Shown: positions 1-29,050, numbered from the stretch's first letter. The stretch is 38,243 nucleotides of DNA from Alphaproteobacteria bacterium SS10 (GCA_019192455.1 JAHCML010000007.1:60383-98625), one strand, 5' to 3'. Made by a program: numbers and translations. The notes: generated from the letters alone by a model not told the origin.

Positions 1-619
1 GACATCCCTGTTTAACCCGGTTGCCCTCTTGGTTGACCGTGACGCGGACACGCCGGAGCAGGTTCTGGGCGTGCCGGTTGCTGATCTCTCCAGCTTTAAT
101 GACGATCAGATGCCAGTCTTGCTCGCTGTTGGTGATCCGATGGGTAAAGAGTTGATCACCCGTCGTGCTGAGGTGCAGGGATTTAATTGGGCTAGCTATG
201 TCGATCCACGGGCCCATATCTCGGGTTTTGCGAAGATAGGGAAGGGCAGCATCGTTGCCCCCTTTGCCGTGGCGGCTGGTGATTGCCAAATCGGTGATTT
301 TTGCTTGCTGAATGCCTTTACCGGTGTCGGCCACGATGCCCGGTTATGCGCCTTCTGCAGCCTGATGCCTGGGGCTACCGTTACCGGTGGCGTTACCCTG
401 GGCGAGGCCGGGTTCATTGGCCCGAACGCCACCATTACCCCTGATCTGACACTGGGTGATCGCTGTCGCGTGTCGGCCGGCACGACGGTTTTCAAAGATG
501 CGGAAGCGGACCATTTGATCGCCGGATCGCCAGCAATGGCTCATATCGATGTGTTCTCCCTCAAAGAGCGCAAACGCCATGGCCTACCGCCGGGCGATGC
601 CAAGGCGGGTGGGGCCTGA
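1..619 (+). CDS. NeuD/PglD-like sugar O/N-acetyltransferase, 5' partial
   Basis: The reading frame stays open to the first base of the window, with codons before the TTG at 29 and no stop, so the N-terminus lies outside. The visible part has the end of a nucleotide-binding-like N-terminal domain followed by a left-handed beta-helix of hexapeptide repeats (for example IGKGSIVAPF, IGDFCLLN, VTLGEAGFIGPNATI). A VGHDARL segment resembles the catalytic-histidine region of PglD/NeuD acetyltransferases. The family transfers acetyl from acetyl-CoA to an amino or hydroxyl group of a nucleotide sugar in the cytosol. It is followed 5 bp later by a methyltransferase gene and heads (or sits within) a glycan-decoration operon. 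The fold is clear; the acceptor sugar cannot be told. Confidence 0.8.
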   Translation, partial: TSLFNPVALLVDRDADTPEQVLGVPVADLSSFNDDQMPVLLAVGDPMGKELITRRAEVQGFNWASYVDPRAHISGFAKIGKGSIVAPFAVAAGDCQIGDFCLLNAFTGVGHDARLCAFCSLMPGATVTGGVTLGEAGFIGPNATITPDLTLGDRCRVSAGTTVFKDAEADHLIAGSPAMAHIDVFSLKERKRHGLPPGDAKAGGA

Positions 620-624
620 TCTAG

Positions 625-1434
625 ATGTCTCAACAAGCCCGCGATCTTGATCGATGCATGGTGTGTGGAAGTCCCGCCGACTTCTATTTTGAAAAGGACT
701 TTGCCGGGCGGCACGATCTTGGGGTTGTTCGCTATGATCGTTGCCGATCTTGCGGCTTTGTCTATTCGCGTACCCATCAGGAAATGTCTGATGAGGTGTG
801 GGGCAAGCTGAACATCGATGTTCATTCAGCCTATCAAGGCATTGACGACAATCCGGAGGATCCGAACTGGATCCCAAGGATGAAGGCCCAGGCCTCAGCG
901 CTCAACCTGCTCGCCACACAAGGGGTAATCCCACAGGATAATCCTTGGGTTGATTGGGGCGCTGGCGATGCGACCCTAACCAAGTTCACGGCTGAGCATG
1001 GGCTCGATCTAAAGCCCTATGACAAATACATCAGCCAGCCGGGCTTCCTGACCGATGAAGAGCTGACCCCTGGCGGTTTTGACCTGGTGATCAGCACATC
1101 CCTGCTTGAGCATGTGATGGATTTGAGTGTGCTTGATGGCATGTCAGATCTGGTGTCGTCCAAGGGCATTCTGGCGGTCCATACCCTCGTTCGGGAAGAG
1201 GTGCCCAAGGACCCAAGCTGGTTCTATCTGGTCCCGGTTCACGTCTCGATGTTCACAAACAAGAGCATGCAAATCCTCTTTGATCGTTGGGGATATGCCT
1301 CATCGATCTACCATGTGCCATCACGGCTTTGGTTCTTCTTCCGTGACCCGGCTGTGAAGGTTGAGGAGATTGCCGCCCAGGACCCTGAGGCCTTCTTCGC
1401 CAAGCGTGGTTTTATGGATTATTGGAAGCTTTGA
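625..1434 (+). CDS. Zinc-ribbon class I SAM-dependent methyltransferase
   Basis: A 269-aa protein. The N-terminus has two CxxC pairs (C11/C14 and C40/C43), the putative zinc-binding domain found in front of sugar C-methyltransferases (Methyltransf_13 type). A Rossmann SAM-binding motif follows at about residues 109-115 (VDWGAGD), with an acidic post-motif stretch (FDLVISTSLLEHV). Family members methylate nucleotide-linked sugars or related small molecules. It lies 5 bp after the acetyltransferase gene and about 90 bp before the acyl carrier protein, all on the same strand, so co-transcription is likely. Substrate is unknown; O-, N- and C-methylation are all possible, but the zinc domain favours a deoxysugar-type substrate. 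Confidence 0.75.
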   Translation: MSQQARDLDRCMVCGSPADFYFEKDFAGRHDLGVVRYDRCRSCGFVYSRTHQEMSDEVWGKLNIDVHSAYQGIDDNPEDPNWIPRMKAQASALNLLATQGVIPQDNPWVDWGAGDATLTKFTAEHGLDLKPYDKYISQPGFLTDEELTPGGFDLVISTSLLEHVMDLSVLDGMSDLVSSKGILAVHTLVREEVPKDPSWFYLVPVHVSMFTNKSMQILFDRWGYASSIYHVPSRLWFFFRDPAVKVEEIAAQDPEAFFAKRGFMDYWKL

Positions 1435-1524: not shown

Positions 1525-1773
1525 GTGGCCGTGGCTACGGTAGATATTTCCGCCCTTCGCGATGTTTTTCAGAAGACCCTAGGCGTTGACCCCGAGCTGG
1601 TGACCGAGGCGGCGGGCCCCGATGATATTCCGGGCTGGGATTCACTCGGCCATATGACCTTAATGACCGCGCTTGAGCAGCATTTCGGTATATCCCTTTC
1701 CATCGATGACATCATGGAAATGGACACCATCGCGGCGATCCTAACGGTGTTGAAGCGGAACGCCGAAGGCTGA
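1525..1773 (+). CDS. Acyl carrier protein
   Basis: An 82-aa acidic helical protein with the phosphopantetheine attachment motif GWDSLGHM (Ser40 with this start). Its length matches stand-alone acyl carrier proteins. The open frame runs back to a TTG at 1441, but the GTG at 1525 is preferred: it has a GAGG ribosome site six bases upstream and gives a normal ACP length. A second GTG at 1531 is also possible. The gene lies 11 bp before an AMP-dependent acyl ligase and upstream of LuxE- and LuxC-like genes. This suggests a dedicated carrier on which an acyl group is loaded and then reduced or transferred, rather than the housekeeping AcpP of fatty-acid synthesis. Confidence 0.85.
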   Translation: MAVATVDISALRDVFQKTLGVDPELVTEAAGPDDIPGWDSLGHMTLMTALEQHFGISLSIDDIMEMDTIAAILTVLKRNAEG

Positions 1774-1784
1774 TTTAGGGCGCC

Positions 1785-3248
1785 ATGGGATCCGCTAACT
1801 TCGCCGCCTATCTCTTTGCGAATCGTTCTTTAGCGCCGGCCCTTATCGATGCGGCCGATGGCCGTGAGGTAACCGACCTCACCACAACCGTCGGACAGGC
1901 AGCGGCCTGGCTTGAGAGTGCCGGACTGAAGCCTGGCGATCGTCTGGTTCTCATCAGCACGTTAAGTCTCGACTGCGCCGTGGCCTATTTGGCCGGTCTT
2001 TGGGCTGGGTTGACCGTTGTTGCGGTTCCCGATGCGGTTGCCGCTGAGATTTCCAGAACGGTTGAGGCGCGGGCGATCTGGACGCCTAAGGACCCAGCGA
2101 AATTAGGCTGGGGTACCGATGCCCTTGTCTTCACCGGTATGCCCCAGGCTGATGGCGCTTGCGATGTTGCTGATCGGCAGGTCGATGATCCAGCGTTGCT
2201 GGTCGCAACCTCCGGCAGCTCAAGGACAACCCCGGATTTGGTCCAGCTGACCCATGGTAATCTGGTGACCAATATCGGTGCGGTGATTAAGTCCCAGGAC
2301 CTAGTCGTCGATGACCGCGCGCTGCTGTTCCTGCCACTGCATTATTGTTTCGGCGTCAGCGTGTTTCTGAGCCACCTCGTGGTTGGTGGCAGCGTGGTCC
2401 TGGATCGGCAATTCATGTTCCCGCAGCGGGTGGTCGATAGTGCCGTTGCCCATAGCTGTACGACCCTGGCTGGCGTGACCACCCACTACCGGTCATTACT
2501 TGAGCATACGCGGTTTGCCGAGACGCCGTTGCCCAGTCTTAGGCGGCAATTGCAGGCCGGCGGGCCGATTGATGAGGATCTGGCCTCACGCTTACAGGCA
2601 GCACACCCAGGGGCTGGCCTCTACTCCATGTATGGCAAGACTGAAGCTACCGCGCGCATCTCAACGCTCCACCCGAATGACCGGGCGAAGTTTAAAGGAT
2701 CGGTTGGCAAACCGGTTGAGGGTGTTGAAATCAGTCTCAGGCCACTTGATGCCGATACCCCCGATGGTGAAGGGGAGTTGATGATCCGTGGCCCATCCGT
2801 GGCGCCCTGCCTTTGGGGGCAGGCGGGTGGTGTTGTGGATGATGATGGATGGCATGCCACAGGCGATTATGCGGCCATTGATGCCGATGGGTTCATCTGG
2901 ATTAAGGGGCGGCTATCCAACTTCACGAAGCTATCGGGCGAGCGGGTTTCATTTGAAGAAGTTGAGGACCGGGTGCGTTGGTTAAAGCTGGCCCATGACG
3001 TGGCCGCCCTGACCACGCGGAATGTTGCAGGCGATGAACAACTGGTCATCCTGCTGGAGGTTGGTGAAGGATCAGGGACGCCATCTGAGAAACCGGACGA
3101 CGCAGCACAACAAATTAGATTTGCGCTACCCCGAAACTGGCCCATCGATTGCGTGCAATGGGTTGATGCACTTCCCCGCACCTCAAATGGCAAGCTGGCG
3201 CGGCGTAACTTGCCGTCGATGATCAGCAAGGAACCTGGCGATGCGTGA
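1785..3248 (+). CDS. AMP-dependent acyl ligase (ANL superfamily)
   Basis: A 487-aa adenylate-forming enzyme. Recognisable motifs: YSMYGKTEA (the YGxTE adenylate-binding motif), DGWHATGDYA (the TGD motif), GRLSNFTKLSGERV (hinge) and PRTSNGKLARR with the C-terminal catalytic lysine. It would activate a carboxylic acid as acyl-AMP and load it on the adjacent carrier protein or on CoA. The phosphate-binding loop near residues 142-149 reads TSGSSRTTPD and lacks the usual second glycine and lysine (TSGSTGxPK), which is odd. It starts 11 bp after the ACP gene and overlaps the next gene by 8 bp, indicating translational coupling. The specific acid is unknown. Confidence 0.8.
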   Translation: MGSANFAAYLFANRSLAPALIDAADGREVTDLTTTVGQAAAWLESAGLKPGDRLVLISTLSLDCAVAYLAGLWAGLTVVAVPDAVAAEISRTVEARAIWTPKDPAKLGWGTDALVFTGMPQADGACDVADRQVDDPALLVATSGSSRTTPDLVQLTHGNLVTNIGAVIKSQDLVVDDRALLFLPLHYCFGVSVFLSHLVVGGSVVLDRQFMFPQRVVDSAVAHSCTTLAGVTTHYRSLLEHTRFAETPLPSLRRQLQAGGPIDEDLASRLQAAHPGAGLYSMYGKTEATARISTLHPNDRAKFKGSVGKPVEGVEISLRPLDADTPDGEGELMIRGPSVAPCLWGQAGGVVDDDGWHATGDYAAIDADGFIWIKGRLSNFTKLSGERVSFEEVEDRVRWLKLAHDVAALTTRNVAGDEQLVILLEVGEGSGTPSEKPDDAAQQIRFALPRNWPIDCVQWVDALPRTSNGKLARRNLPSMISKEPGDA

Positions 3249-4350
3249 CGACGCGGCTACCAATGATCAGATCCAGGAGATCTTAAAGCGTCCGGTCTAT
3301 GACCGGGATGACGGCGCGGTGCTTGACCTCTTTCGCACCCATATTGAGCGCGGGATGGCGTTGAATGAGGGGTACCGGAACTTTGTCGAGCATTGGCCAA
3401 AAGATTTTGCCAGCGCTGAGTTGGCGGACTTTCCCTATCTGCCAGTTGGCATCTTCAAACGCGAAGTGCCGTTGGCACTCTGTGAGCCGGATAAGATCAC
3501 CCGTGTGATTAGGTCGAGTGCCACAACTGGCCAGCAACCAGCCGCCATACCCATTGATTTGCAGACCGGTCGCACAATGGCAAAGAGTGCGTCCCTGATT
3601 TTCCAGTCTATCCTGGGTCCGGATCGGCGGCCCTTCCTGGTTATTGATGCGGCATCAGTGAACGCGGCACAGGCCGACCTCAACGCGCGCGGTGCCGCCA
3701 TCCGCAGCTTGATGCCGTTTGCCAAGACGGTGACCTACGGCCTCTCAGATGATGATCTTGAGCCGCTGATTGATCAGCTGAGCGTCTTCTCAGAAGAGCA
3801 TGGTGATGAGGATGTGCTGGTCTATGGCTTTACCTGGGTGCTCTGGGCCCGGTTGGTTGACCAGCTTCAGGATAAGGGGATTAAGCTCAACCTTAAGAAC
3901 GCCAAGGTGCTGCATTCCGGTGGCTGGAAGAAGCTGACAAGCGAGGCCGTGGACAAAGCGACCTTCAATCAAAGGGTGGCCGAGGTGGTGGGCTGCACCC
4001 CTGCCGATGTCATCGATTTCTACGGCATGGTTGAGAATTTGGGTGTGGTCTATCCCGATGGGCCAACCGGGTTTAAGCATCCGCCGATCTTTGGTGGGGT
4101 GGTGATCCGTGATCCGTTGACGTTAGAGCCGGTATCACCCGGTGAAACCGGTCTACTGCAGGTTTGTAGCATCGTGCCGACCAGCTTTCCGGGCTGGCTC
4201 TTGCTGACCGATGATATGGCAGAGCTGGTGGGATACGATGACCCTGAAAGCCGCCGGCCGGGACCCTACTTCCGATTGAAGGGCCGTGCGCCAAAGGCCG
4301 AAATTAGAGGGTGCGGTGAAGTCATTGCCAAGCGTTTTGCCAATGCATAG
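3241..4350 (+). CDS. LuxE-like acyl-protein synthetase
   Basis: A 369-aa member of the LuxE/PaaK-like acyl-protein synthetase family. It has an RSSATTGQQP phosphate-binding loop at residues 91-100 and the family's LHSGGWKK and DFYGMVE segments. In bioluminescent bacteria LuxE activates a fatty acid as acyl-AMP and passes the acyl group to the LuxC reductase. Here no luciferase genes accompany it; instead it sits between an acyl ligase/ACP pair and a LuxC-like reductase inside a glycan locus. The ATG at 3241 lies inside the end of the preceding gene (8-bp overlap). The family call is firm; the acyl substrate is unknown and probably not the tetradecanoyl group of luminescence. Confidence 0.8.
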   Translation: MRDDAATNDQIQEILKRPVYDRDDGAVLDLFRTHIERGMALNEGYRNFVEHWPKDFASAELADFPYLPVGIFKREVPLALCEPDKITRVIRSSATTGQQPAAIPIDLQTGRTMAKSASLIFQSILGPDRRPFLVIDAASVNAAQADLNARGAAIRSLMPFAKTVTYGLSDDDLEPLIDQLSVFSEEHGDEDVLVYGFTWVLWARLVDQLQDKGIKLNLKNAKVLHSGGWKKLTSEAVDKATFNQRVAEVVGCTPADVIDFYGMVENLGVVYPDGPTGFKHPPIFGGVVIRDPLTLEPVSPGETGLLQVCSIVPTSFPGWLLLTDDMAELVGYDDPESRRPGPYFRLKGRAPKAEIRGCGEVIAKRFANA

Positions 4351-5617
4351 CGATGGCCCGAACATGGTTCTGCGCCCGCAATCCGCCGAGGATGTTCGGG
4401 CGGCGGTGGCACCACTGACCCGGGTCGATTTTGAGCCTGAGCGGGACATCCAAGCCCTGGCCGCCTTTGGCGATGCGCTTGAGAAGGCGACGGACCTTCA
4501 CACCATCCCAGGCTTTGTGTTCCTGCGCCTTTGGCTGCGCCAGGCGTCACTTGAACGGGTGATCGAACAGGATTTTGGGACAGACCAAACGCAAGCCGAC
4601 AGCATCGTGATGCCACTTGGTGTGGTCAGCTGCTGGCCGGCTGCAAATGTTGAGATCCAGCCGCTCTTAGCAGCCTCAACCATCTTGCTGTCCGGCAATG
4701 CCTGTGTTCTGCGCGTACCTAGCGATCTAGTTAAGATCACGGAGCTGTTCTTAAAAACGCTTCGTGAGTCTGACGCTTGGCCCGTATTTGAGAACCGGTT
4801 GGTTGCCATGGCAATTGATCGGTCAAATACCGAGCTGCTCGGGGCCATGGCGGCGACGTCTGACGGCGCATCGATTTGGGGTGGTGCCGAGGCAATCAAT
4901 GCTGTTCGTGCCTTGCCCTTCCGACCCGGCGCACGGTTTGTTGTGTTTGGCCCACGTTACTCAGTCGGCGTGGTGTCCGCTGATATGCTGGGCCGTCCGG
5001 ATACCCATCAGCTGATCTGTGAGAGGTTGGCCCGGGATGTTTGGCCATTTGAGCAGAATGCCTGCTCCTCGCCCCATGTGCTTTATGTTGAGGCACCGGA
5101 GCAGGAACCTGGCGGTGCTTTAGGGGCGGCGGCAACCGGTTTTCTGGATACCCTGAAAGATGCGTTTGAGCGTGAGGATCGGTACCACCCGCGGGAGGTG
5201 TTGGAGCCTGTTATGGCGACCTCAGTCTCACTGGTGCGGGCCGAATGGTTGATGCGTGATCAGAACCATGTCGCGGTTCAATCGAGCGCCCCGTCTTGGA
5301 CGATCCTCGCTGGTTCGTCGCCTGTATCCATGCCCACCTCTGGTTACCGGGTTTTGGTGACGTTGTTCGTCAATAACCTCGATGACGTTGTCGGCACGCT
5401 AGACCCTGATGTTCAAACAGTCGGCATGGCCTGCGGCGATGAGGGGCGAGAGCGAAAGCTGGCGCGAAGCCTTGCCTGCCGCGGCGTTGACAGGATTGTC
5501 CCGTTTGGGCAAATGCATATCTTCGATACACCTTGGGATGGACATGCAGTCTGTGCATCATTGACCCGCATTGTTCGCCATAATCTTTCAACCACTGCCT
5601 TCGGGAGCCAATCATGA
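4343..5617 (+). CDS. LuxC-like acyl-CoA/acyl-protein reductase
   Basis: A reductase of the LuxC family, distantly related to aldehyde dehydrogenases. It has the nucleotide-binding PLGVVSCWPAANVEIQP segment, a second conserved region (PFRPGARFVVFGPRYSVGVV) and the active-site cysteine in QNACSSPH (Cys241 with this start). LuxC takes an acyl group on this cysteine and reduces it with NADPH to an aldehyde. The ATG at 4343 overlaps the LuxE stop by 8 bp, like the preceding gene pair. An upstream GTG at 4286 with a GAAGGG-like ribosome site is the alternative and would add 19 residues and overlap luxE by 65 bp. The gene ends in an ATGA overlap with the next methyltransferase. The aldehyde's fate is unknown. 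Confidence 0.8.
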   Translation: MHSDGPNMVLRPQSAEDVRAAVAPLTRVDFEPERDIQALAAFGDALEKATDLHTIPGFVFLRLWLRQASLERVIEQDFGTDQTQADSIVMPLGVVSCWPAANVEIQPLLAASTILLSGNACVLRVPSDLVKITELFLKTLRESDAWPVFENRLVAMAIDRSNTELLGAMAATSDGASIWGGAEAINAVRALPFRPGARFVVFGPRYSVGVVSADMLGRPDTHQLICERLARDVWPFEQNACSSPHVLYVEAPEQEPGGALGAAATGFLDTLKDAFEREDRYHPREVLEPVMATSVSLVRAEWLMRDQNHVAVQSSAPSWTILAGSSPVSMPTSGYRVLVTLFVNNLDDVVGTLDPDVQTVGMACGDEGRERKLARSLACRGVDRIVPFGQMHIFDTPWDGHAVCASLTRIVRHNLSTTAFGSQS

Positions 5618-6519
5618 TGGATGGTTGCGCGTTCTTCTTGGACGCCGTCAAAACCCACGCAAAGCTATTCTATGGTGAGGCTGAGAAGGCGGTTAACGCC
5701 GATCGCGAGGTGGCCGGTTGGCTGCTGGATCCGCTCGCAACCTGGGCGGTTGACGCCTATGGCGACGAGATCGCGAAGCCAGCCGCCCAGGGCTATGCGA
5801 CCTACGCGCTGCACGTCGCGAAATCCCAACAGGCCTATGAGGCGAATGGTTCGTTCAACGATCTGGAGTTGGATGAGATCGTGAACTCCGTCTATGACGA
5901 GCCCGGCTACATGGTCCCGTATATGTGGGCGGCGATCCTGATCTATGGCCTGTGGCCGACAATGCAGCCGCATCTGCGCCTGTTCCGCGATGATTTCCTG
6001 GCCCATCTACCAGAGGGCGCGACCGTTTCTGAGATTGCCTGCGGCCACGGTGTCCTGTCACTCCTGGCGCTGCAGAGCCGCCCAGATATCACGGTTATTG
6101 CCCAGGATATCTCACCCTCAGCGCTGAAGATTGCTGAACGCCTGTCTGCCAGCGCCGGCCTGACAGAGCGGATCGAACTCAGTGTTGGTGATGCAACCGC
6201 GCCGACCGATGACCCGCCGGTTGATGCGGTGATCGCGGGCATGCTGGCAGAGCATTTGCCCGAGCCACAGAAGATGTTCCATGGCGTAGCCGACCGATTG
6301 AAGCCAACCGGCACAGCGTTCATCGGTGCCGCGTTAGAGTCAGCGCAGCGCGATCATATCTATGAGTTCCACCGGGAGAGTGAACTCGTCGTCATGGCGG
6401 AGACGGCAGGTTTAAGGGTCGAGAAGCTGCTGTCCGAACGTGCCAAGCATCGTAATCGCGGTAAGTTCTCACCTCGTGCCTTGGCTATGACGGTTGAGAA
6501 GTTCCCGTTGAACGCATAA
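5614..6519 (+). CDS. Class I SAM-dependent methyltransferase
   Basis: A 301-aa protein. An N-terminal helical part of about 125 residues precedes a Rossmann methyltransferase domain with motif I VSEIACGHGVLS, an acidic residue after the second strand (VIAQDIS) and VDAVIAGMLAEHLPEP. Its start overlaps the LuxC-like stop as ATGA, so it is translationally coupled to the acyl-reduction module and probably acts on the same product or on the glycan carrying it. The substrate cannot be read from sequence. Confidence 0.7.
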   Translation: MMDGCAFFLDAVKTHAKLFYGEAEKAVNADREVAGWLLDPLATWAVDAYGDEIAKPAAQGYATYALHVAKSQQAYEANGSFNDLELDEIVNSVYDEPGYMVPYMWAAILIYGLWPTMQPHLRLFRDDFLAHLPEGATVSEIACGHGVLSLLALQSRPDITVIAQDISPSALKIAERLSASAGLTERIELSVGDATAPTDDPPVDAVIAGMLAEHLPEPQKMFHGVADRLKPTGTAFIGAALESAQRDHIYEFHRESELVVMAETAGLRVEKLLSERAKHRNRGKFSPRALAMTVEKFPLNA

Positions 6520-6566: not shown

Positions 6567-7637
6567 ATGACAACTCTAGTATTTCCAAGCAGCACGCCAG
6601 AAAGTCATCGCTACCTTCAGGAGGCGGTGAACAGAGGTGAGCCGGTTGTTGCGGCATCCTCTGTTAAGGCGTCGCTCGATATTGATGGTCTAACGGATCA
6701 TGCCTTACCGCTAATCAATCAAGACGGGTTTGATGAGGCGCTGATCGCCTTGGTTAAGGCCAATGGGGTAAAGCGAGTTTTCTCACCCTCGGCGGTTGTC
6801 TATGTGCACCTTCGCAAACTGATTGAGCGTGAGAATTTACCGCTCCAATTTGTCCAACTGCCACCGATCTATCAGGAGATGGAGCGGCAGACCGATGAGG
6901 CAGCAGCGGCAAGGCTGGATATTGAGTATGCGTCCCAGTTTCTGAACGGTGGTGACTTCCTCACCGCGCCACAGCTGCAGGCCCTATTGCGGGCTGCTTT
7001 TGGGATTTACGGTGAGTCTTACCGCCATAAGTTGGTTGCACTGGCGGCCTGCGCGTTTACCGCGCCAGCCGGTGACTATGTTGAGATTGGGTGCCTTTAT
7101 GGCCGGTCCTGTAGCGTGATTGTGCAAGCGCTGAAGATGGCAGGTCGTTCGGATGCCGTGCTTGCGATTGATGCCTGGGCTAGTGATGTCGCCCACCAGA
7201 CCTCTTTGTCTGATGATCTCGCCGATGAATGGCTATCCCGGGACCTAACCCCCATCGCTGATGCGTTTGATGCCAATCTGATGCCACTGGCAACCAGGGG
7301 GCAGTTTAACCGTTTGCGGCTACCCTCAGCGGAGGCACGCCCGCAATATGGTCCCAAGGCGGTCATCTCAACCGATGCATTCGGACCGACCCAGTACACT
7401 GGCCAGATCGGTTTTCTGCACATTGACGCCAATCACGATTATGAGGCGGTTAAGGCCGATCGCGATCTGTGGTGCCCACTTGTTAAGCCTGGCGGTTGGA
7501 TCGTCTTTGACGATTATAATTGGCGCCATGGCGCGGGGCCTGGCCAAGCCGCTGATGAATTTTGCGCGGCGCGTCAGGATGATATCGAGCGATGCGTGTT
7601 CTTGGATGGCGCGCTGTTTATCAAGCTTGCCGCCTGA
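6567..7637 (+). CDS. Two-domain protein: pre-ATP-grasp-like N-terminus plus SAM methyltransferase
   Basis: A 356-aa protein. The first 100 or so residues (VFPSSTPES, a GVKRVFSPSA stretch) resemble the N-terminal Rossmann-like domain of ATP-grasp or carbamoyl-phosphate-type enzymes, but no ATP-grasp catalytic domain follows. The C-terminal part is a Methyltransf_24-type domain: GDYVEIGCLYGRSCS is motif I, then AVLAIDAWASD, IGFLHIDANHDYEAV and GGWIVFDDYNW, the last two with acidic residues that in TylF-like relatives bind a metal. It lies 47 bp after the previous methyltransferase and ends 10 bp from the convergent aminotransferase gene. Probably glycan modification; the role of the N-terminal part is unclear. 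Confidence 0.65.
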   Translation: MTTLVFPSSTPESHRYLQEAVNRGEPVVAASSVKASLDIDGLTDHALPLINQDGFDEALIALVKANGVKRVFSPSAVVYVHLRKLIERENLPLQFVQLPPIYQEMERQTDEAAAARLDIEYASQFLNGGDFLTAPQLQALLRAAFGIYGESYRHKLVALAACAFTAPAGDYVEIGCLYGRSCSVIVQALKMAGRSDAVLAIDAWASDVAHQTSLSDDLADEWLSRDLTPIADAFDANLMPLATRGQFNRLRLPSAEARPQYGPKAVISTDAFGPTQYTGQIGFLHIDANHDYEAVKADRDLWCPLVKPGGWIVFDDYNWRHGAGPGQAADEFCAARQDDIERCVFLDGALFIKLAA

Positions 7638-7647
7638 GGGGCGCCGG

Positions 7648-8766
7648 TTAGTTGAGCGCCGTACTGAGTGTTGAGCAGACAATTTCCACTTGCTCATCAG
7701 TCAGGTCGATTGAGAACGGTAGGCCAATCGTCGTTGTCGCCAACGCCTGCGTCGCGGGCAGCGGGTCCCGCGCGATGCCCATATATCCCGGATGGGTATG
7801 ACAGCCGCCGCGCCACCAACGCCTCGTGTCGATGCCATGGTCATTCAAACGCTTGGCAACCCGGTGGCCATCCCCTTTGACCCGGACACAGCAATAGGAT
7901 GAGACCCAGCCATCACCATAGGCAGGATGCAGCGAGACGTTATCCATCGAGCCTAACAGCTCTTGATACTTATGCGTGACGCGTTCCCAGGCGACGCGTT
8001 TATCCGGCCAATTATCCATGCAGGCCATGCCGACGGCGGCCGCATACTCACTCAACTTGGCATTCCAGCCGCTAATCTGTGCGACAGAGATTTGGTAGAA
8101 GCCAAAGTTACCGATCTGCCGGGCGCGTTGGACAAGATCACTATCGGTGCAGACGATAAAACCGCCCTCACCAACGCCAAAGGTCTTGGTGGCGTGTAGG
8201 CTAACCGCCATAGGCGTTGGTCCCGGCTTCATCATCTCAGTACTGGCAATGGCATCGAAGGCTGCCGCCGCATCGATCACCACAGGAATGCCGGTTTGTT
8301 CGGTAAACCGATCCCAGGCGGCCCGGTCGAGCGGCGCGCCAAATGGGGCGACGGTGACGACGGCGCCGATCTCATCCAGATCATTGCGGTCATAAAGCTG
8401 GTCTGGGGTTAGGGCCCAACTATCAATATCCACATCGACAAAGTACGGCTCCAATCCGGCCGTAATCACCGCCGATACGGTGCCCACAAAGGTCCAGGAT
8501 GGCATCAGGCATTTGCGGCCAGGGACTGCACCCGCCGCTGTTAGGGCAACGGTGATTGCCAGGGTTCCATTTGAGACGCAGGCAATACCCTCTGGGATGA
8601 CATTGACCGTGTCCGCAATCCCTTGCTCAAACTCAACCAACAAGGGGCCACGGTTGCTGTACCAACGGGTTTCGTCGATCCGCTGAAGATAAGGCAGGAT
8701 CGCTTCCGCTGGCGGCAGCAGGGGTTTTAGGACGGGGATGCGATTGTTCTTATTGCCGTCGGCCAT
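7648..8766 (-). CDS. DegT/DnrJ/EryC1/StrS-family PLP aminotransferase
   Basis: A 372-aa fold-type I aminotransferase of nucleotide-sugar metabolism. The PLP lysine is K194 in SLHATKTFGVGEGG. VIDAAAAF (D165, interacts with the PLP pyridine nitrogen), SNGTLA and PSWTFVGT are typical of the family. These enzymes transfer an amino group, usually from glutamate, to a keto-sugar or aldehyde to give an amino sugar. It is the last gene of the minus-strand glycan operon, 60 bp after the glycosyltransferase-like gene. Either a 4-keto or 3-keto sugar nucleotide, or conceivably the aldehyde from the facing LuxC operon, could be its substrate; the second option is speculation. Confidence 0.85.
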   Translation of the reverse strand: MADGNKNNRIPVLKPLLPPAEAILPYLQRIDETRWYSNRGPLLVEFEQGIADTVNVIPEGIACVSNGTLAITVALTAAGAVPGRKCLMPSWTFVGTVSAVITAGLEPYFVDVDIDSWALTPDQLYDRNDLDEIGAVVTVAPFGAPLDRAAWDRFTEQTGIPVVIDAAAAFDAIASTEMMKPGPTPMAVSLHATKTFGVGEGGFIVCTDSDLVQRARQIGNFGFYQISVAQISGWNAKLSEYAAAVGMACMDNWPDKRVAWERVTHKYQELLGSMDNVSLHPAYGDGWVSSYCCVRVKGDGHRVAKRLNDHGIDTRRWWRGGCHTHPGYMGIARDPLPATQALATTTIGLPFSIDLTDEQVEIVCSTLSTALN

Positions 8767-20411: not shown

Positions 20412-21440
20412 TTAGGTCAGGTCTAGGCATTCCTGATGCAGATGGGCTGGGATCGTGACGCCCTGTTGCTTTGCCTTAGCGCGCTTATCCGCGCGACCGA
20501 TACCGGGTAGTCTAACGCCGTCCTGTTCCGTCATGGCGGTCAACAGGACCTCTAGCTTTGGCCCAAAATCATGGGTTGCGATGCCACCCGGATCAAAGGC
20601 GATGATGGTGTGGCCAACGCCTGGGGGCGCACCCTCAGCATCGAAGAATGAGCTTGCCTCAAATGACTGATTGGCGCCGGTCAGGGTGGCGCAAAGGATC
20701 TCAACCATCAGGGCCAGCATCGCGCCCTTGGCATCCCCCGCCGGTAGCATCGTGCCGGCTAGGGCCGCTTCAGCATCGGTTGTTGGGTGGCCATCAATAT
20801 CCAGCGCCCAGCCTTCTGGAATTGGCTTGCCCTGCTTGGCTGCCGCCATAACTTTGCCGCGTGCAACCTTCGAGATTGAGAGGTCAATCACCAGCGGCAT
20901 CTCACCCAGTCGTGGGGCAGCGAAGGCGATCGGGTTGGTGCCAAAGAACGGTTGAGAGCCACCCCATGGCGCAATCGCTGGTGGGGCATTGGAGACCATT
21001 ATGGCGACCAATCCTTCTTCAGCCAGACGTTCCACATGGGCGCCCAACTGCCCGCAATGGTGGGAGCGGCGGATTAGGGCAGCGGCAACACCGGTGGTTG
21101 GCGCAACCTCCACTAATTGGTCGATCACGGCATCAATTGCCGGGAAGGCAAAACCATGCTGCGCATCGATGGTCAGCAAGGCCGGTTTGGGACGATCGAT
21201 AATCGGCTGTGCTTGCCCATCAACCTTGCCCGACTTGGCTTGGGCGGCATAGGCCTGAACGCGGGAGAAGCCATGACCAGCCTGTCCATCAATCTCAGCC
21301 GCAACCAGGGCCCTGGCGACGCTAAGCGCATTGGCCGCTGAGACATTGTTCGACTTCAGCGCGCTGACGATCAGCTGCTCCGCCTCTGCAACTGGCAGCG
21401 AGATCGTGTCTAGACCACTACCGGCGGATGGGGTCGTCAT
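20412..21440 (-). CDS. comC: Ldh2-family oxidoreductase, probable (R)-sulfolactate dehydrogenase
   Basis: A 342-aa member of the malate/L-lactate/ureidoglycolate dehydrogenase (Ldh2) family: AAEIDGQAGHGFSRVQAY, a RSHHCGQLGAH segment holding the catalytic histidine, FFGTNPIAFAAP and a C-terminal PGIGRADKRAKA. ComC of this family reversibly converts (R)-sulfolactate and sulfopyruvate using NAD(P). Family membership is firm; the sulfolactate substrate is inferred from its position as the last gene after suyAB and the exporter. Its start overlaps the exporter stop as ATGA. In Chromohalobacter a second dehydrogenase (SlcC) completes a racemising pair; none is seen here. Confidence 0.7.
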   Translation of the reverse strand: MTTPSAGSGLDTISLPVAEAEQLIVSALKSNNVSAANALSVARALVAAEIDGQAGHGFSRVQAYAAQAKSGKVDGQAQPIIDRPKPALLTIDAQHGFAFPAIDAVIDQLVEVAPTTGVAAALIRRSHHCGQLGAHVERLAEEGLVAIMVSNAPPAIAPWGGSQPFFGTNPIAFAAPRLGEMPLVIDLSISKVARGKVMAAAKQGKPIPEGWALDIDGHPTTDAEAALAGTMLPAGDAKGAMLALMVEILCATLTGANQSFEASSFFDAEGAPPGVGHTIIAFDPGGIATHDFGPKLEVLLTAMTEQDGVRLPGIGRADKRAKAKQQGVTIPAHLHQECLDLT

Positions 21441-22447
21441 AGGGTGACCAACCCACTCTTCACCGCCAGGATGGCGGCACCCAACAGGAAGAGTGTCTCG
21501 GCCACAACGACGGCGATATGGCGCCAGCCGAGTTCGCCCATCGCCTTAATGCTGGTTTTCACGCCGAGCGCTGAGATCGCGGTGACCAGAAGCCAGGAGG
21601 ATAGGGAGACCGCCGCCTGCGCCACCTGTTCAGGAATAATGCCGAAGCTGTTGGCAGCGGCGACGAGCACAAAGCCGATAACAAAGGCTGGCAGCTTGAT
21701 GGTGCCGCCCTCACGCGGAGAGGTTGCAAGCGCCAGAACGATGATCAACAGGACCACCGGCAACATGGTGACCCGAAGCAGTTTCACGATGGTGGAGGTA
21801 TCCCCTGCCTCAGTTGAGATTGAGTAACCGGCACCAACCACTTGGGCCACGTCATGGATGGTGGCACCGATGAGGAACCCACTTTCCATCTCCGACATAC
21901 CGATGAGGGAGAACAGGATCGGGTAGACGATCATCGCCACGGTGGAGAGCGTGGTTACCGCCACCACGGTGAACAGCGTGTTGCGTTCGGTCTTATCGTT
22001 TTGCGGAATGACCGAGGATAGGGCGAGCGCAGCAGAGGCACCGCAGATCGCGACCGCACCGCTGGTTAAAAGGCCAAAACGCCAACCCCGGTTAAACAGC
22101 CGCGCGCACACAAAGCCAAAGGCGATGGTCAGGCCGATTAGGCTGATCACGGTAACCAGACCGGTAATGCCGATCGAGGCAATATCGCTGAAGGTAATGC
22201 GCGCACCCAGCAAGACGATACCGGCCCGCAGCAACGTCTTGGATGATAGATCGATACCCGGCTTACAGCGGGTGTCGGCGGCGAGGAAGTTGAAGGCCAT
22301 GCCCAGCAACAGGGCAAACAGCATCACCGGTGCTGCGTAATGCCCGGCCAGAAACATCGAGGCAGCCGAGATCGTGACCGCCAGCATTAAGCCTGGGAAG
22401 AGGGCCACAACACGGTCGCGGGCAGAGGTGATTGATAGGTTTGGCAT
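21437..22447 (-). CDS. suyZ: SuyZ-like sulfite/sulfate exporter (YeiH/PSE family)
   Basis: A 336-aa membrane protein with about ten hydrophobic segments. Family-typical stretches are LLRAGIVLLGARITFSDI, SGAVAICGASAALA and GATIHDVAQVVGAGYS, marking the putative sulfate exporter (TIGR00698, YeiH) family. In sulfolactate degraders the family member SuyZ lies beside suyAB and is thought to remove the sulfur anion released from the sulfonate. The ATG at 22447 lies three bases after the T-run of a terminator-like hairpin, and the only purine-rich ribosome site is the G-run of that hairpin. Coupled to the downstream dehydrogenase by ATGA. Confidence 0.8.
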   Translation of the reverse strand: MPNLSITSARDRVVALFPGLMLAVTISAASMFLAGHYAAPVMLFALLLGMAFNFLAADTRCKPGIDLSSKTLLRAGIVLLGARITFSDIASIGITGLVTVISLIGLTIAFGFVCARLFNRGWRFGLLTSGAVAICGASAALALSSVIPQNDKTERNTLFTVVAVTTLSTVAMIVYPILFSLIGMSEMESGFLIGATIHDVAQVVGAGYSISTEAGDTSTIVKLLRVTMLPVVLLIIVLALATSPREGGTIKLPAFVIGFVLVAAANSFGIIPEQVAQAAVSLSSWLLVTAISALGVKTSIKAMGELGWRHIAVVVAETLFLLGAAILAVKSGLVTL

Positions 22448-22450
22448 GGC

Positions 22451-22492
22451 AAAAAAAGCCCCCCACCGACTAGCGAACCAGCCGGTGGGGGC
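22451..22492 (-). terminator. Rho-independent terminator or attenuator between suyB and suyZ
   Basis: On the minus strand a GC-rich inverted repeat (CCCCCACCG at 22491-22483 and CGGTGGGGG at 22468-22460) with a 14-nt loop is followed by seven T (22457-22451). This is a textbook intrinsic terminator, 13 bases after the suyB stop. It ends three bases before the suyZ start codon, so suyZ and comC would be read only by readthrough, and the hairpin would also hide the suyZ ribosome site. Confidence 0.85.
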
Positions 22493-22504
22493 TAGGTTAC
22501 GCAG

Positions 22505-23686
22505 TTAGGCGCTGCGATAGAGTTTAGTCATTGAGAACTCGCGGTGACCAAGAGCTTCAGCAGCGGTGAAACGGCCATTCGCGGTGCGGCGGATCATGTC
22601 TATCAACTCGTCCCCCGCCTCATCAATGGTCATCTCCCGGCGTAGGATGCCCGAGACATCAACATCGACATGCTCACTCATCGTACGAACAGTACGCGGG
22701 TTCGCGGTGATCTTGATCACCGGCACGATGGGGTTACCAACCACATTGCCCTGCCCGGTTGGGAAGGTGTGGATGACATAGCCACCGGCCGCCATCAGGG
22801 TCACGCACTCAGCCGCGGCTGACGAGCTATCCATGAAATACAGGCCCTTACCTGATTTCGGGATCTCCGCTGGCTCCAGGATATCGATGTATTTGGAGGT
22901 GCGGCCGATCTTCTCGAGGTTGCCGAGAGCTTTTTCCTCGATGGTGGTTAGGCCACCCTCAATATTGCCCTTGGTCGGCTGGCTGTCTGAGAGATCATCG
23001 GTCTGGTGGGCGAAGATCACCTCATCTTGATAGGCCTTCCACATCTTGTACCAACGCTCGCCCACCTCATCATTGGCGGCACGCTTTTGGCAGATATGCT
23101 CAGCGCCGGTGATCTCTGACGTCTCACCAAAGACGCCGTAGATGCCCTCTGGCAGCAACTTGTCATACATGTTGCCAACGGTCGGGCAGGAGCCGAGGCC
23201 AGTGGTCGTGTCACTCTCACCGCATTTGGTTGAGACCCAAAGCTCGGAGATTGAGCACTCTTCCTTCTCAAGCTCGGATGCCCAATGGACGAAATCCTTC
23301 GCCGCCCAGCTGGCAGCGCGGATGGTCTCGAAATCACCTTTCTGCTCGATTGAGAACTCAGCGACGGGCTTACCGGTTTCGCGGATGCCATCGGCGATCT
23401 TCTTGGTCCAGCCGGGTTCAATCCCGATGACCACCACGGCGGCCACATTGGGGTTTGAGCCGGTGCCGATCATGGTCCGGAAATGCAGTTCCAGATCTTC
23501 GCCGAATTGCAGGCGGCCGTAGGCGTGTGGGATCGCAAGCGTGCCCTTCACATTGTTGGCCACTGCCTCACAGGCGGCGTTGGAGATATCATCAACCGGG
23601 AGGATCACCACATGGTTGCGGACACCGACCCGATCATTCTCACGCCGGTATCCTTTAAAGGTCATGTTTGAGTATTTTGACGCCAT
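22505..23686 (-). CDS. suyB: (R)-sulfolactate sulfo-lyase large subunit SuyB
   Basis: A 393-aa protein of the UxaA/altronate dehydratase C-terminal family: [19 protein letters not shown] at the start, [20 protein letters not shown] in the middle and [14 protein letters not shown] near the end. SuyAB, an iron-dependent lyase, cleaves (R)-3-sulfolactate to pyruvate and sulfite. The large and small subunits are separate adjacent genes, as in characterised suyAB loci, and the neighbours (HpsN, exporter) support sulfolactate over altronate or galactarate. Ribosome site GGAGA precedes the ATG at 23686. The gene is 12 bp after suyA. Confidence 0.87.
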
Positions 23687-23698
23687 CGGTCCGTCTCC

Positions 23699-23989
23699 TT
23701 ACCAGCGTTTGGTTTTGCAGTTATGGGTGTGGACGTGGCGTCCCTGTGGGATGTCGGCGATGATCTTGCCGATATCCTCGCCATACTTGATGGCGGTGTC
23801 GTCCGTCTTCAGATCGACCAGCGCGATCTTATGGCCGATCGGCACATCATCCCCGGCCTTCAATCGGAAGGTTGAGTTGTCATGGGTGATGCAGCACAGC
23901 ATATCGGTGCCAGCTTTCAGCCCTTCAACAACGACGACGCCGACATTGTCGGCCTTCTCATGCACCAGAAGATGCGGGGTTTCAGACAT
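23699..23989 (-). CDS. suyA: (R)-sulfolactate sulfo-lyase small subunit SuyA
   Basis: A 96-aa SAF-domain protein: VHEKADNVGVVVVEGLKAGT, DDVPIGHKIALVDL and AIKYGEDIGKIIADI are the conserved stretches of the small subunit of UxaA-type lyases. It forms the active enzyme with SuyB. The ATG at 23989 has a strong AGGAGAT ribosome site. It ends HVHTHNCK, as in other SuyA/UxaA N-terminal subunits where the histidines lie near the active site. It sits 14 bp after the alcohol dehydrogenase gene in the hps/suy operon. Confidence 0.87.
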   Translation of the reverse strand: MSETPHLLVHEKADNVGVVVVEGLKAGTDMLCCITHDNSTFRLKAGDDVPIGHKIALVDLKTDDTAIKYGEDIGKIIADIPQGRHVHTHNCKTKRW

Positions 23990-24003
23990 TGGGTGATCTC
24001 CTG

Positions 24004-25005
24004 TCAGTCCTTGGGATTTAGAATGATTTTGGGTGCGGCGGCGCGACCGTCCCGGATATCAGCAAAGGCCGAGGCGCCATCGGATAGGGGGCGCACCTCA
24101 AACCAATCGAGGGCGCCAAGCCGACCGCTAAACATCGCGGCCGCTGTCTCACGGAAGTCTTCCGGGGTGTAGGTATAGGTGCCGATAAAGGTGATCTCTT
24201 GCAGCGTTAGGCGCCGGATATCGAGGCCGCCTGAACCGCTGCCAAGGCCGATATGGACGATGACGCCGCCCGGCTTTGCCATGCGTGATGCAGCGGCGCG
24301 GGTTGCTTCAAAGCCGACGGCATCAACCACCACATCGATCTGGCCATAATCGCCATCTGAACGTTCGCTTGGATCAAAAACGGTGAACGGTCCGGCCTGC
24401 TGCAAGGGGGCATGTCGGAGGGTATTGGTCTCGGCAATCTCAATCCGCTCAGCGCCTGCGGCAGCAAGTGATAAGGCCGATGCGAGGCCGATGGCACCGC
24501 CACCTATGACAACACAACGTGCCTCAGTTAGCGGGATGGCCGATGCCTCACCGGCCAACCGCACGGCATGCCAGCCACAGGCGAGGGGCTCGGCGAGTGC
24601 GGCCTTCACCAATGGGAAATCATCGGGCACGGTCACCAAGTTCTCTGGTGGCATGGAAACATATTGGGCAAATGCGCCGGGCCTCGGCGGCATCGAGATA
24701 ATCTCGCGATAGGCGCAAAGGTTGTTACGACCAGCAAGGCAGGCCGAGCATTTGCCACAGGTGACCAGTGGGTTGATGGTCACGCGTCGGCCCTTATCAA
24801 GTCCGGAGACCACAACACCAGCCGCCTCATGGCCAAGGATCAACGGCGCTGGTCGCCGCTCATCATGACCGAAATAGGCATGCATGTCCGAGCCGCAGAT
24901 ACCCGCGGCATCGACCTCAATCAGCATCTCGCCATCGCGTTCGGAGGCATCAACCTCGTCCCGGTATTCGAGCGCTTCTTTGCCGGTGTAAACGAGTGCC
25001 TTCAT
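24004..25005 (-). CDS. Zinc-dependent alcohol dehydrogenase, probable DHPS 2-dehydrogenase (HpsO/HpsP-like)
   Basis: A 333-aa medium-chain dehydrogenase. The catalytic zinc region is GICGSDMHAYFGHD with GHEAAGVV, the structural zinc set is CGKCSACLAGRNNLC, and the NAD site is GGGAIGLASALSLAAAG. In the known 2,3-dihydroxypropane-1-sulfonate (DHPS) pathway two 2-dehydrogenases, HpsO and HpsP, interconvert the enantiomers through a keto intermediate. The adjacent SDR is the natural partner. Start overlaps the SDR stop as ATGA. The MDR family is certain; the sulfonate substrate is inferred from the operon. Confidence 0.78.
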   Translation of the reverse strand: MKALVYTGKEALEYRDEVDASERDGEMLIEVDAAGICGSDMHAYFGHDERRPAPLILGHEAAGVVVSGLDKGRRVTINPLVTCGKCSACLAGRNNLCAYREIISMPPRPGAFAQYVSMPPENLVTVPDDFPLVKAALAEPLACGWHAVRLAGEASAIPLTEARCVVIGGGAIGLASALSLAAAGAERIEIAETNTLRHAPLQQAGPFTVFDPSERSDGDYGQIDVVVDAVGFEATRAAASRMAKPGGVIVHIGLGSGSGGLDIRRLTLQEITFIGTYTYTPEDFRETAAAMFSGRLGALDWFEVRPLSDGASAFADIRDGRAAAPKIILNPKD

Positions 25006-25760
25006 TTCGCGGTGAACCCGCCATCAACGAACAGCACCTGACCGGTCACGTAGTCTGAGGCCGGGGAGCAGAGGAAGAGCAGCGGCCCCTCGATATCGCT
25101 GAGCTCGCCATTCCGACCGATACAGGTTTGCGCCGCGTTGCGGGCCGAGCGCTCAGCATCGGAGAAGACAGGGCCGGTCAATTCGGTTGGGAAGAAGCCG
25201 GGCGCCAGCGCATTGGTGTTGATGCCAGATGATGACCACGCCTCTGCCATGGCCCGGGTCAGCTGCTCAACGCCGCCCTTAGAGGCGCCATAGGCAATAC
25301 CGCCAGGGAAGGCCCGACGTGATTGCAAAGAAGCGAAATTGACGATGCGACCCCAGCCACTCTCCACCATGGCGCCAGAGAATTCTTGGGCCAGGAAGAA
25401 GGGAACGGTGAGGTTCACATGGATGGTTTGGTCCCAGCCCTCAGCGGTTACGTCATCGGCGCTTTCGCGCAGATTGACCCCGGCGGCGTTAACCAGAATG
25501 TCGGGCGCACCAAAGCAATCGGCCACCTGTAGGCAGATATCTGGCAAGGCGTCCCGGTCACCAAGATCGGCTGCAATGGCTACGGTTTCACCCTGTGTTT
25601 CCGATCGCCAGGCTTCCAATGCATCCGCGCGGCGCGCCAGGCCAATAACCTTGGCGCCAGCGCGTGCCAGCATGGTGGCTGCAGCGCGGCCCAGGCCGCT
25701 GCTCGCGCCGGTGACGCAAGCGACCTTACCCTCAACCGAGAATACCGGGCTGGTTGCCAT
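25002..25760 (-). CDS. SDR oxidoreductase, probable DHPS 2-dehydrogenase (HpsO/HpsP-like)
   Basis: A 252-aa classical short-chain dehydrogenase: cofactor motif TGASSGLG (residues about 17-24), NAAGVN, the active-site FASLQS serine and YGASK (YxxxK), and a C-terminal GQVLFVDGGFTAK. Start is the ATG at 25760 with a GAGG site eight bases upstream; a GTG three codons earlier is possible. It begins 10 bp after hpsN and is coupled to the zinc alcohol dehydrogenase. Two dehydrogenases of different families side by side fit the HpsO/HpsP racemising pair of the DHPS pathway; which is O and which is P I leave open. Confidence 0.8.
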   Translation of the reverse strand: MATSPVFSVEGKVACVTGASSGLGRAAATMLARAGAKVIGLARRADALEAWRSETQGETVAIAADLGDRDALPDICLQVADCFGAPDILVNAAGVNLRESADDVTAEGWDQTIHVNLTVPFFLAQEFSGAMVESGWGRIVNFASLQSRRAFPGGIAYGASKGGVEQLTRAMAEAWSSSGINTNALAPGFFPTELTGPVFSDAERSARNAAQTCIGRNGELSDIEGPLLFLCSPASDYVTGQVLFVDGGFTAK

Positions 25761-25770
25761 TCCCGTCACC

Positions 25771-27078: not shown

Positions 27079-27091
27079 CAACAAAACCCTC

Positions 27092-28423: not shown

Positions 28424-28432
28424 GGCGGTTCC

Positions 28433-28948
28433 TCAATCAAAGAGCTTGTCGCCCTCGTACACCTCACGCCCGCCGAGCAGGTCTTTGATGTCACGAAGGA
28501 AAGATTGGAAAAGGCGAAGCATCACCAGCGCAAAGCCGATGGGTACCGCCGAGAGGAACCAGACCTGGGAGATCCGCAGGCCATGGGTAACTGATCCGAA
28601 CTTCGCCGAGACGAGCACCGTCTCAAACGACCAGTAGAGCGCCACAATCGCGACCCCGAACATGACCAGATCACCGAAGATGTAGAGCAGGGCCTTAACC
28701 CGCCGCCCGACATATTGGAGGATCACATCAATCCGGATATGCGCCCGCTCACGCACCGCCGAGGCAGCACCGATCCAGGCAAGGTAGATAAAGGAATATC
28801 GGACGATCTCCTCACCCCAGATGGATGAGTAGGCAAAGACTTCGCGTCGTACGACTTCGATGAACATCGTTGCGACCAGCATTGAGTAGAAGACGAGCAG
28901 GGCCCATCGTTCTGCATTGCGGTCCAACGCTGCGATAAAGCGCGGCAT
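28433..28948 (-). CDS. dctQ: TRAP transporter small permease (DctQ-like)
   Basis: A 171-aa protein with four membrane segments; RREVFAYSSIWGEEIVRYSFIYLAWIGAASAVRE contains the family's W(x)EE and FxYLxWIGA pattern. It binds the DctM subunit in the inner membrane. A GGAGAG ribosome site precedes the ATG at 28948. It is separated from dctP by about 100 bp with two hairpins. Confidence 0.88.
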   Translation of the reverse strand: MPRFIAALDRNAERWALLVFYSMLVATMFIEVVRREVFAYSSIWGEEIVRYSFIYLAWIGAASAVRERAHIRIDVILQYVGRRVKALLYIFGDLVMFGVAIVALYWSFETVLVSAKFGSVTHGLRISQVWFLSAVPIGFALVMLRLFQSFLRDIKDLLGGREVYEGDKLFD

Positions 28949-28989
28949 GGGACTCTCCAGTTAAGCGGAGCGGTTTTTTGGCAAGCACA

Positions 28990-29042
28990 CCCGCCATTCT
29001 TCGGGCGGGGAAGAGTGGGGCCGGCAAACTAGCGCCAGCCCC
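28990..29042 (-). other. Two tandem hairpins between dctP and dctQ
   Basis: Reading the minus strand, an inverted repeat of 9 bp (29042-29034 with 29025-29017, one G-U pair, 8-nt loop) starts eight bases after the dctP stop, followed by a second 6-bp GC stem (29009-29004 with 28995-28990, 8-nt loop). Neither is followed by a T-run, so they are probably not terminators. They resemble 3' stabilising or processing structures that let the binding protein be made in excess over the permeases. Confidence 0.6.
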
Positions 29043-29050
29043 GAACTCAC

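What the first reader, a model, noticed from the sequence alone, without database searches (positions are those of the whole stretch)
1525..5617. LuxE-LuxC aldehyde-forming module without luciferase in a glycan locus
ACP, acyl ligase, LuxE-like synthetase and LuxC-like reductase follow each other with 8-bp overlaps, and LuxC keeps the QNACSSP cysteine. With two activating enzymes and a carrier but no luxAB, the module appears to make a specific aldehyde from a carrier-bound acid beside sugar-modifying enzymes. The aldehyde may become an alcohol, an amine (through the facing aminotransferase) or be attached to a sugar. I know of no defined pathway that uses this set, so it is the best candidate here for an undescribed biosynthetic system.
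Basis: partly seen in the sequence, partly recalled or inferred. Interest (0 to 1): 0.75.

Follow-up and report, generated by a model that had tools for sequence, protein, structure and literature searches.

The report
Hydroxy-acid maker for decorating surface sugars
These genes most likely make a small hydroxy-acid and hang it on a surface sugar, as the cholera bacterium is thought to do for its O1 coat; the gene set is widespread and partly described, so this is a variant of a known kind of pathway, not a new system.

Summary
ACP, AMP-ligase, LuxE and LuxC lie head to tail (8-bp overlaps) with all catalytic residues, and the genome has no bacterial luciferase. The claim that no defined pathway uses this set does not hold. 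The Vibrio cholerae O1 tetronate genes (rfbKLMNO, VC0248-0252) contain carrier, ligase and a LuxE-bearing protein, and Vibrio genomes searched here carry ACP-ligase-FeADH-LuxE/LuxC in that order. The same ACP-(reductase)-ligase-LuxE-LuxC set is published for flagellin-glycosylation islands of Aeromonas and Enterobacteriaceae. A scan found at least 558 LuxE relatives; of the best 80 loci 77 carry the ligase, 76 LuxC, 71 the ACP and none luxAB. Just upstream of the window lies a FabG-like reductase, and the first window gene is a PerB/VioB-type N-acyltransferase. Best reading: LuxE+LuxC+reductase turn one carboxyl of a short dicarboxylate into an alcohol, the ligase loads the other carboxyl on the ACP, and the acyltransferase puts the hydroxyacyl on an amino sugar. 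In nine Clostridium loci the same genes lie near 4-hydroxybutyryl-CoA dehydratase, which independently points to C4 acids. The window belongs to a subclade in which a methyltransferase follows LuxC. Substrate and product remain unproven.

The parts
29..619 (+). PerB/PglB/VioB/NeuD-type left-handed beta-helix N-acyltransferase (gene starts 67 bp before the window); proposed to transfer the carrier-bound acyl group to an amino sugar
   Evidence: Hexapep 1.8e-19; NeuD/PglB/VioB subfamily 134 bits, cut-off 160.8; best solved relative perosamine N-acetyltransferase 4ea7, E 5e-21, then PglB-type and VioB 7txp. A FabG-like SDR lies directly upstream (L007:19189-19911, i.e. 811 to 89 bp before the window)
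625..1434 (+). SAM methyltransferase (cluster c27), also beside the module in Magnetococcales
   Evidence: Methyltransf_23 1e-6; homologue in L056/L100
1525..1773 (+). Acyl carrier protein
   Evidence: PP-binding 3e-9; attachment Ser conserved in 100/100 module ACPs
1785..3248 (+). AMP-forming acyl ligase, proposed to load the acid on the ACP
   Evidence: AMP-binding 4e-45; Glu of YGxTE, Asp of TGD and C-terminal Lys conserved in 108/108; ligase gene in 77 of the 80 best LuxE loci
3241..4350 (+). LuxE-type acyl-protein synthetase, proposed to activate the carboxyl that is reduced
   Evidence: LuxE 1.6e-55; solved relative 7xc6_E 2.8e-13; acyl Cys358 invariant
4343..5617 (+). LuxC-type acyl reductase, releasing the aldehyde
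   Evidence: LuxC 4.4e-47; Cys241 invariant; model matches 7xc6_A, TM 0.81
5614..6519 (+). SAM methyltransferase 'MT33' that follows LuxC in the window's LuxE clade; proposed to methylate the product
   Evidence: 4-bp overlap with LuxC; present downstream of LuxC in all members of the 11-row clade; fold resembles small-molecule methyltransferases at low TM
6567..7637 (+). Second downstream methyltransferase-like gene; role unknown
   Evidence: Methyltransf_24 8e-18
7648..8766 (-). DegT-family sugar aminotransferase, probable source of the acceptor amino sugar
   Evidence: DegT 1.1e-55; DesI-like 158 bits, cut-off 650; solved relatives 3ju7 and 2po3

Best explanation
The genes form a tetronate-type N-acyl pathway. 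A short dicarboxylate (most likely C4, such as malate or succinate) has two carboxyls, which explains the two activating enzymes. LuxE activates one carboxyl as acyl-AMP, takes it on its Cys358 and passes it to LuxC Cys241, which reduces it to the aldehyde. The FabG-like SDR just upstream reduces the aldehyde to an alcohol. The AMP ligase loads the other carboxyl on the ACP, either after the reduction or before it, in which case the reduction happens while the substrate is tethered. The PerB/VioB-like acyltransferase moves the hydroxyacyl group to the amino group of a 4-amino sugar made by the DegT aminotransferase. The methyltransferase behind LuxC probably caps a hydroxyl. Shown: the genes, their intact residues, their conserved order and the absence of luciferase. 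Inferred: the substrate, the order of steps, the acceptor sugar and the methylation.
For: Set conserved in 80 named loci: ligase 77, LuxC 76, ACP 71, SDR 53, DegT 37, luxAB 0; ACP+ligase+LuxC on one strand close to LuxE in 64/80. Vibrio loci carry ACP-ligase-FeADH-LuxE/LuxC fusion (825-827 aa) in the tetronate-pathway order; tetronate role of VC0248-VC0252 (PMC3441752), RfbL activating 2,4-dihydroxybutanoate for CoA or RfbK (PMC12208996), LuxE domain in RfbN (PMC4772473). A reductase-type partner (SDR, FeADH, transketolase set or AbfD set) is found in 64 of 80 loci. The window's acyltransferase is closest to perosamine N-acetyltransferase. Independent pointer to C4 acids: nine Clostridium loci carry AbfD near the module and seven also 4-hydroxybutyrate CoA-transferase (1u8v E 2e-243; 3eh7 E 8.5e-176 and 3gk7). 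Aeromonas piscicola, from a group whose islands carry ACP-SDR-ligase-LuxE-LuxC, has a 376.14-Da pseudaminic derivative; Pse5Ac7Ac with one acetyl replaced by dihydroxybutanoyl is 376.148 Da.
Against: No enzyme of this clade has been assayed in anything I could read. The V. cholerae pathway is itself largely proposed from sequence. The window is not in the RfbN clade, lacks the FeADH and has split LuxE/LuxC. In Clostridium the four genes occur without the sugar acyltransferase, so the ligase+ACP may belong to the reduction step rather than to transfer onto sugar. The 376-Da match is a composition match only and other isomers fit. 16 of 80 loci show no recognised reductase partner within the DNA held. 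The acceptor sugar of the window is not identified.
Confidence: 0.62

Rival explanations
1. Liposugar: the module makes a fatty aldehyde or fatty acyl group that is put on a glycan, as suggested for the Aeromonas and enterobacterial islands.
For: LuxE and LuxC of luminous bacteria make fatty aldehyde; authors of PMC7874193 and PMC4875605 proposed a liposugar.
Against: Scores far below the fatty-acid equivalog cut-offs (LuxE 56.6 vs 550, LuxC 32.1 vs 750). Linked genes handle C4 acids in Clostridium. The mass reported for A. piscicola fits a small polar group. No LuxD-type gene was found beside the module in the 80 loci.
Confidence: 0.12
2. Carrier-tethered carboxylate reductase: ACP, ligase, LuxE and LuxC are one four-part enzyme. 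The ligase loads a dicarboxylate on the ACP by one end, LuxE and LuxC reduce the free end on the carrier, and the product is used for different purposes (sugar acylation here, 4-hydroxybutyrate metabolism in clostridia).
For: The four genes are kept together in Clostridium loci without a sugar acyltransferase; FabG- and FabZ-type ACP enzymes recur beside the module; the order ACP-ligase-LuxE-LuxC is nearly constant.
Against: Gene adjacency cannot show tethering; LuxE could equally act on the free acid. This is a refinement of the best explanation more than a contradiction of it.
Confidence: 0.18
3. The aldehyde is aminated by the facing aminotransferase or joined to a sugar by carbon-carbon bond formation.
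For: A DegT gene faces the operon; in 12 of 80 loci split transketolase genes accompany the module, which would suit an aldehyde acceptor there.
Against: The window DegT protein is closest to sugar 4-aminotransferases; no transketolase or other ThDP enzyme was seen among the window proteins scanned.
Confidence: 0.05

Closest known systems
[quoted passage not shown]
   Same: Carrier, acid-activating ligase, LuxE and LuxC activities, a reductase and an N-acyltransferase for a 4-amino sugar
   Different: Window: SDR instead of iron alcohol dehydrogenase, LuxE and LuxC as separate genes, a methyltransferase behind LuxC, LuxE in a separate clade
Flagellin glycosylation island set of Aeromonas group II (orf1 ACP, orf2 SDR, orf3 ligase, luxE, luxC) and Enterobacteriaceae
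   Same: Same five activities, in a sugar locus, no luciferase
   Different: There tied to pseudaminic acid genes or to flagellin genes; the window genome has no NeuB and its flagellins lie on another contig
Luminous-bacteria fatty acid reductase LuxCDE
   Same: LuxE and LuxC families, catalytic cysteines, LuxC fold
   Different: No luxAB, no LuxD-like gene; a dedicated ligase and ACP instead; far below the equivalog cut-offs
Magnetococcales locus JADGCL010000005.1 (L100 = L056) and Acidobacteria loci L094-L098
   Same: Closest module relatives: LuxE 46-49% identical, methyltransferase after LuxC; Magnetococcales also has the acyltransferase, SDR and second methyltransferase, with flagellin nearby
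   Different: Acidobacterial members often add a FabZ-type dehydratase, which the window lacks

Membership tests
V. cholerae O1 rfbKLMNO tetronate pathway | ACP, ligase, LuxE and LuxC together in one operon | tested here: met
V. cholerae O1 rfbKLMNO tetronate pathway | Iron-type alcohol dehydrogenase between ligase and LuxE/LuxC | tested here: not met
   No FeADH in the window locus; an SDR lies upstream instead
V. cholerae O1 rfbKLMNO tetronate pathway | LuxE-LuxC fused in one protein and grouping with the Vibrio fused proteins | tested here: not met
   Separate genes; separate clade in the LuxE tree
V. cholerae O1 rfbKLMNO tetronate pathway | Hexapeptide-repeat N-acyltransferase for a 4-amino sugar | tested here: met
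   Closest solved relative is perosamine N-acetyltransferase; use of acyl-ACP as donor not tested
V. cholerae O1 rfbKLMNO tetronate pathway | Perosamine as acceptor (GDP-mannose dehydratase plus DegT aminotransferase) | tested here: inconclusive
   A strong GDP-mannose-dehydratase-family match lies on another contig, C9 (530 bits), DegT in the window; no proof that they act together
V. cholerae O1 rfbKLMNO tetronate pathway | Product 2,4-dihydroxybutanoyl amide | not testable with these tools
   Needs biochemistry or glycan mass data
Flagellin glycosylation island module (Aeromonas group II) | ACP, SDR, ligase, LuxE, LuxC | tested here: met
   published set
Flagellin glycosylation island module (Aeromonas group II) | Linked to pseudaminic acid genes or flagellin | tested here: not met
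   No NeuB in the genome; flagellins on contig C3
Bacterial bioluminescence fatty-aldehyde system | luxAB luciferase | tested here: not met
   No PF00296 match in the genome; 0 of 80 relatives have LuxAB beside LuxE
Bacterial bioluminescence fatty-aldehyde system | LuxE and LuxC reach the long-chain equivalog cut-offs | tested here: not met
   56.6 vs 550 and 32.1 vs 750 bits

The most novel reading that the evidence does not exclude
ACP, ligase, LuxE and LuxC are the core of a widespread carrier-tethered reductase that converts one carboxyl of a short dicarboxylate to an aldehyde while the other end sits on a carrier protein. It has been recruited for surface-sugar decoration (window, Vibrio, Aeromonas-type islands) and for 4-hydroxybutyrate metabolism in Clostridium. 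The window's clade adds a methyl cap.
Probability: 0.3. Interest if true: 0.65.

Novelty: new variant of a known kind. Interest (0 to 1): 0.42.

Why it matters
If right, a gene set repeatedly annotated as 'fatty acid synthesis' or 'liposugar' in flagellin and surface-glycan loci would instead be a maker of small hydroxy-acyl groups, a clear and testable reinterpretation. It would suggest an identity for unexplained masses such as the 376-Da pseudaminic derivative and perhaps the 102-Da moiety of Aeromonas flagellin. It would also link surface glycans to a short-chain dicarboxylate reductase that clostridia appear to keep near 4-hydroxybutyrate genes; the open-access library I could search held no paper making that link.

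Tried and rejected
Search of viral contigs with LuxC: nothing. Phmmer of LuxC against solved structures: nothing; the relation to 7xc6 appeared only by fold. A second 'LuxC' family hit in the genome (C6, 21.2 bits, at the cut-off) was taken as a general aldehyde dehydrogenase and not followed. The Shewanella sfmABCDE operon was considered and set aside: it has an SDR and a ThDP enzyme but no LuxE/LuxC. Pseudaminic or legionaminic acid as the window's sugar was rejected: no NeuB in the genome. The fold search of the methyltransferase gives only general small-molecule methyltransferases (TM about 0.5) and does not name a substrate. Literature search linking LuxE to 4-hydroxybutyrate: three papers hold the words, none by title or abstract on the subject, and I did not read them.

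Full report
Observation. ACP 1525-1773 (longest frame from 1441), AMP ligase 1785-3248, LuxE 3241-4350, LuxC 4343-5617 (longest frame from 4286) and a methyltransferase 5614-6519 lie on the plus strand with gaps of 11, -8, -8 and -4 bp. Pfam assigns all five at E 3e-9 or better. The catalytic residues are present: ACP serine 100/100, ligase lysine 108/108, LuxE Cys358 125/125 and LuxC Cys241 120/120 in alignments of relatives. The AlphaFold model of LuxC (pLDDT 88) has LuxC of the Photobacterium fatty acid reductase 7xc6 as top structural match (TM 0.81). The genome (G000, 3.19 Mb) has no bacterial luciferase family member.

Surroundings. The operon starts outside the window. A FabG-like SDR lies 811 to 89 bp upstream (L007:19189-19911) and the acyltransferase gene begins 67 bp before the window. 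This acyltransferase belongs to the PerB/PglB/VioB/NeuD group of amino-sugar N-acyltransferases; its best solved relative is perosamine N-acetyltransferase. The facing DegT protein resembles sugar 4-aminotransferases such as DesI. Further genes include two weakly assigned glycosyltransferases, a dehydratase/epimerase-family protein, a TylF-type methyltransferase and a GDSL hydrolase. The genome has no NeuB, so it does not make nonulosonic acids by the usual route; it has a strong GDP-mannose-dehydratase-family gene on another contig. Flagellins are on a third contig.

Relatives. Scored with profiles built from the first loci, 77 have the ligase, 76 LuxC, 71 ACP, 53 an SDR, 37 DegT, 20 NeuB, 12 split transketolase, 4 flagellin and none LuxAB. 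ACP, ligase and LuxC lie close to LuxE on the same strand in 64 of 80. In the LuxE tree (122 rows, SH-aLRT) the window falls in an 11-row clade (support 99) whose members all carry the MT33 methyltransferase behind LuxC: Acidobacteria, Verrucomicrobiota, Gammaproteobacteria and Magnetococcales. Clostridium loci form another group (93) and the fused LuxE-LuxC proteins a third (91). Long branches make the deep order unsure, and L056 is the same sequence as L100, so the clade has ten distinct rows.

Known precedent. The genes VC0248-VC0252 of V. cholerae O1 are assigned to tetronate synthesis, the tetronate acylating the amino group of perosamine (PMC3441752). RfbL (VC0249) is described as activating 2,4-dihydroxybutanoate for CoA or for the carrier RfbK (PMC12208996), and RfbN carries a LuxE domain (PMC4772473); the original pathway proposal is Morona et al. 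1995, cited there and not read by me. Four loci of the same genus retrieved here (L194-L196, L203) show ACP, ligase, FeADH and an 825-827-aa LuxE-LuxC fusion in this order. That RfbM is an iron alcohol dehydrogenase and RfbO a hexapeptide acyltransferase is from my own knowledge. Separately, the five-gene set ACP, SDR, ligase, LuxE, LuxC is published for Aeromonas flagellin islands (98 strains, PMC7874193), for Enterobacteriaceae (PMC4875605) and, with transketolase halves, for Dickeya zeae (PMC7575072); the first two read it as fatty acid or liposugar synthesis.

Mechanism. A dicarboxylate needs two separate activations if one end is to become an alcohol and the other an amide. That is what a LuxE/LuxC pair plus a ligase/ACP pair supply, with the SDR (or FeADH) reducing the aldehyde. 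Support for short acids comes from Clostridium: AbfD (4-hydroxybutyryl-CoA dehydratase, 1u8v E 2e-243) lies near the module in nine loci, and 4-hydroxybutyrate CoA-transferase (3eh7, 3gk7) in seven. At least one of these loci also has a CoA-acylating aldehyde dehydrogenase (L119), so the role there is not settled. Because these loci lack the sugar acyltransferase, ACP and ligase may take part in the reduction itself; I keep this as a rival refinement. For Aeromonas piscicola the reported linking sugar of 376.14 Da equals Pse5Ac7Ac with one acetyl replaced by a dihydroxybutanoyl group, 376.148 Da, and the same group has 102.03 Da. This is a composition match and isomers such as O-methylglyceroyl fit equally.

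Verdict. The claim of an undescribed system is reduced to a variant of a known kind: it works like the tetronate pathway but is not filed as a member of it, because the FeADH and the fused LuxE-LuxC were tested and not found. What I have not seen described is the size of the family, the methyltransferase subclade, and the Clostridium link to C4 acids. No step has been shown biochemically in this genome.

Noticed in passing
L103, L105-L109, L117, L119, L122 (Clostridium): ACP-ligase-LuxE-LuxC lies near 4-hydroxybutyryl-CoA dehydratase in nine loci and near 4-hydroxybutyrate CoA-transferase in seven; a sigma-54 type regulator accompanies most. Possible succinate-reducing route.
   Followed up: partly
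L052, L065, L070, L126, L134, L142, L157, L163, L165, L172 and others: Split transketolase (N and C halves) accompanies the module in 12 of the 80 loci and in several others, often with two SDRs; the LuxC aldehyde could be extended by a two-carbon unit there.
   Followed up: partly
window 20412-30202: TRAP transporter, histidinol-dehydrogenase-like, SDR, Zn-ADH, altronate-dehydratase-like and Ldh_2 genes in a row, resembling a sulfonate (DHPS/sulfolactate) degradation cluster; assignment from Pfam plus memory only.
   Followed up: no
L006:6191-17995 (upstream in the same contig): A single open frame of 3934 aa of unknown type.
   Followed up: no
L069, L088, L089: Fused LuxE-LuxC of about 820 aa with FeADH and ligase in another family; in L069 a GDP-mannose-dehydratase-like gene follows.
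   Followed up: partly
L120:7698-8105: A holo-ACP synthase gene directly precedes the module ACP in a Methanomassiliicoccus bin.
   Followed up: no
L095, L096, L098, L099, L101, L102: A FabZ-type dehydratase follows the MT33 methyltransferase; not explained by the simple tetronate scheme.
   Followed up: no
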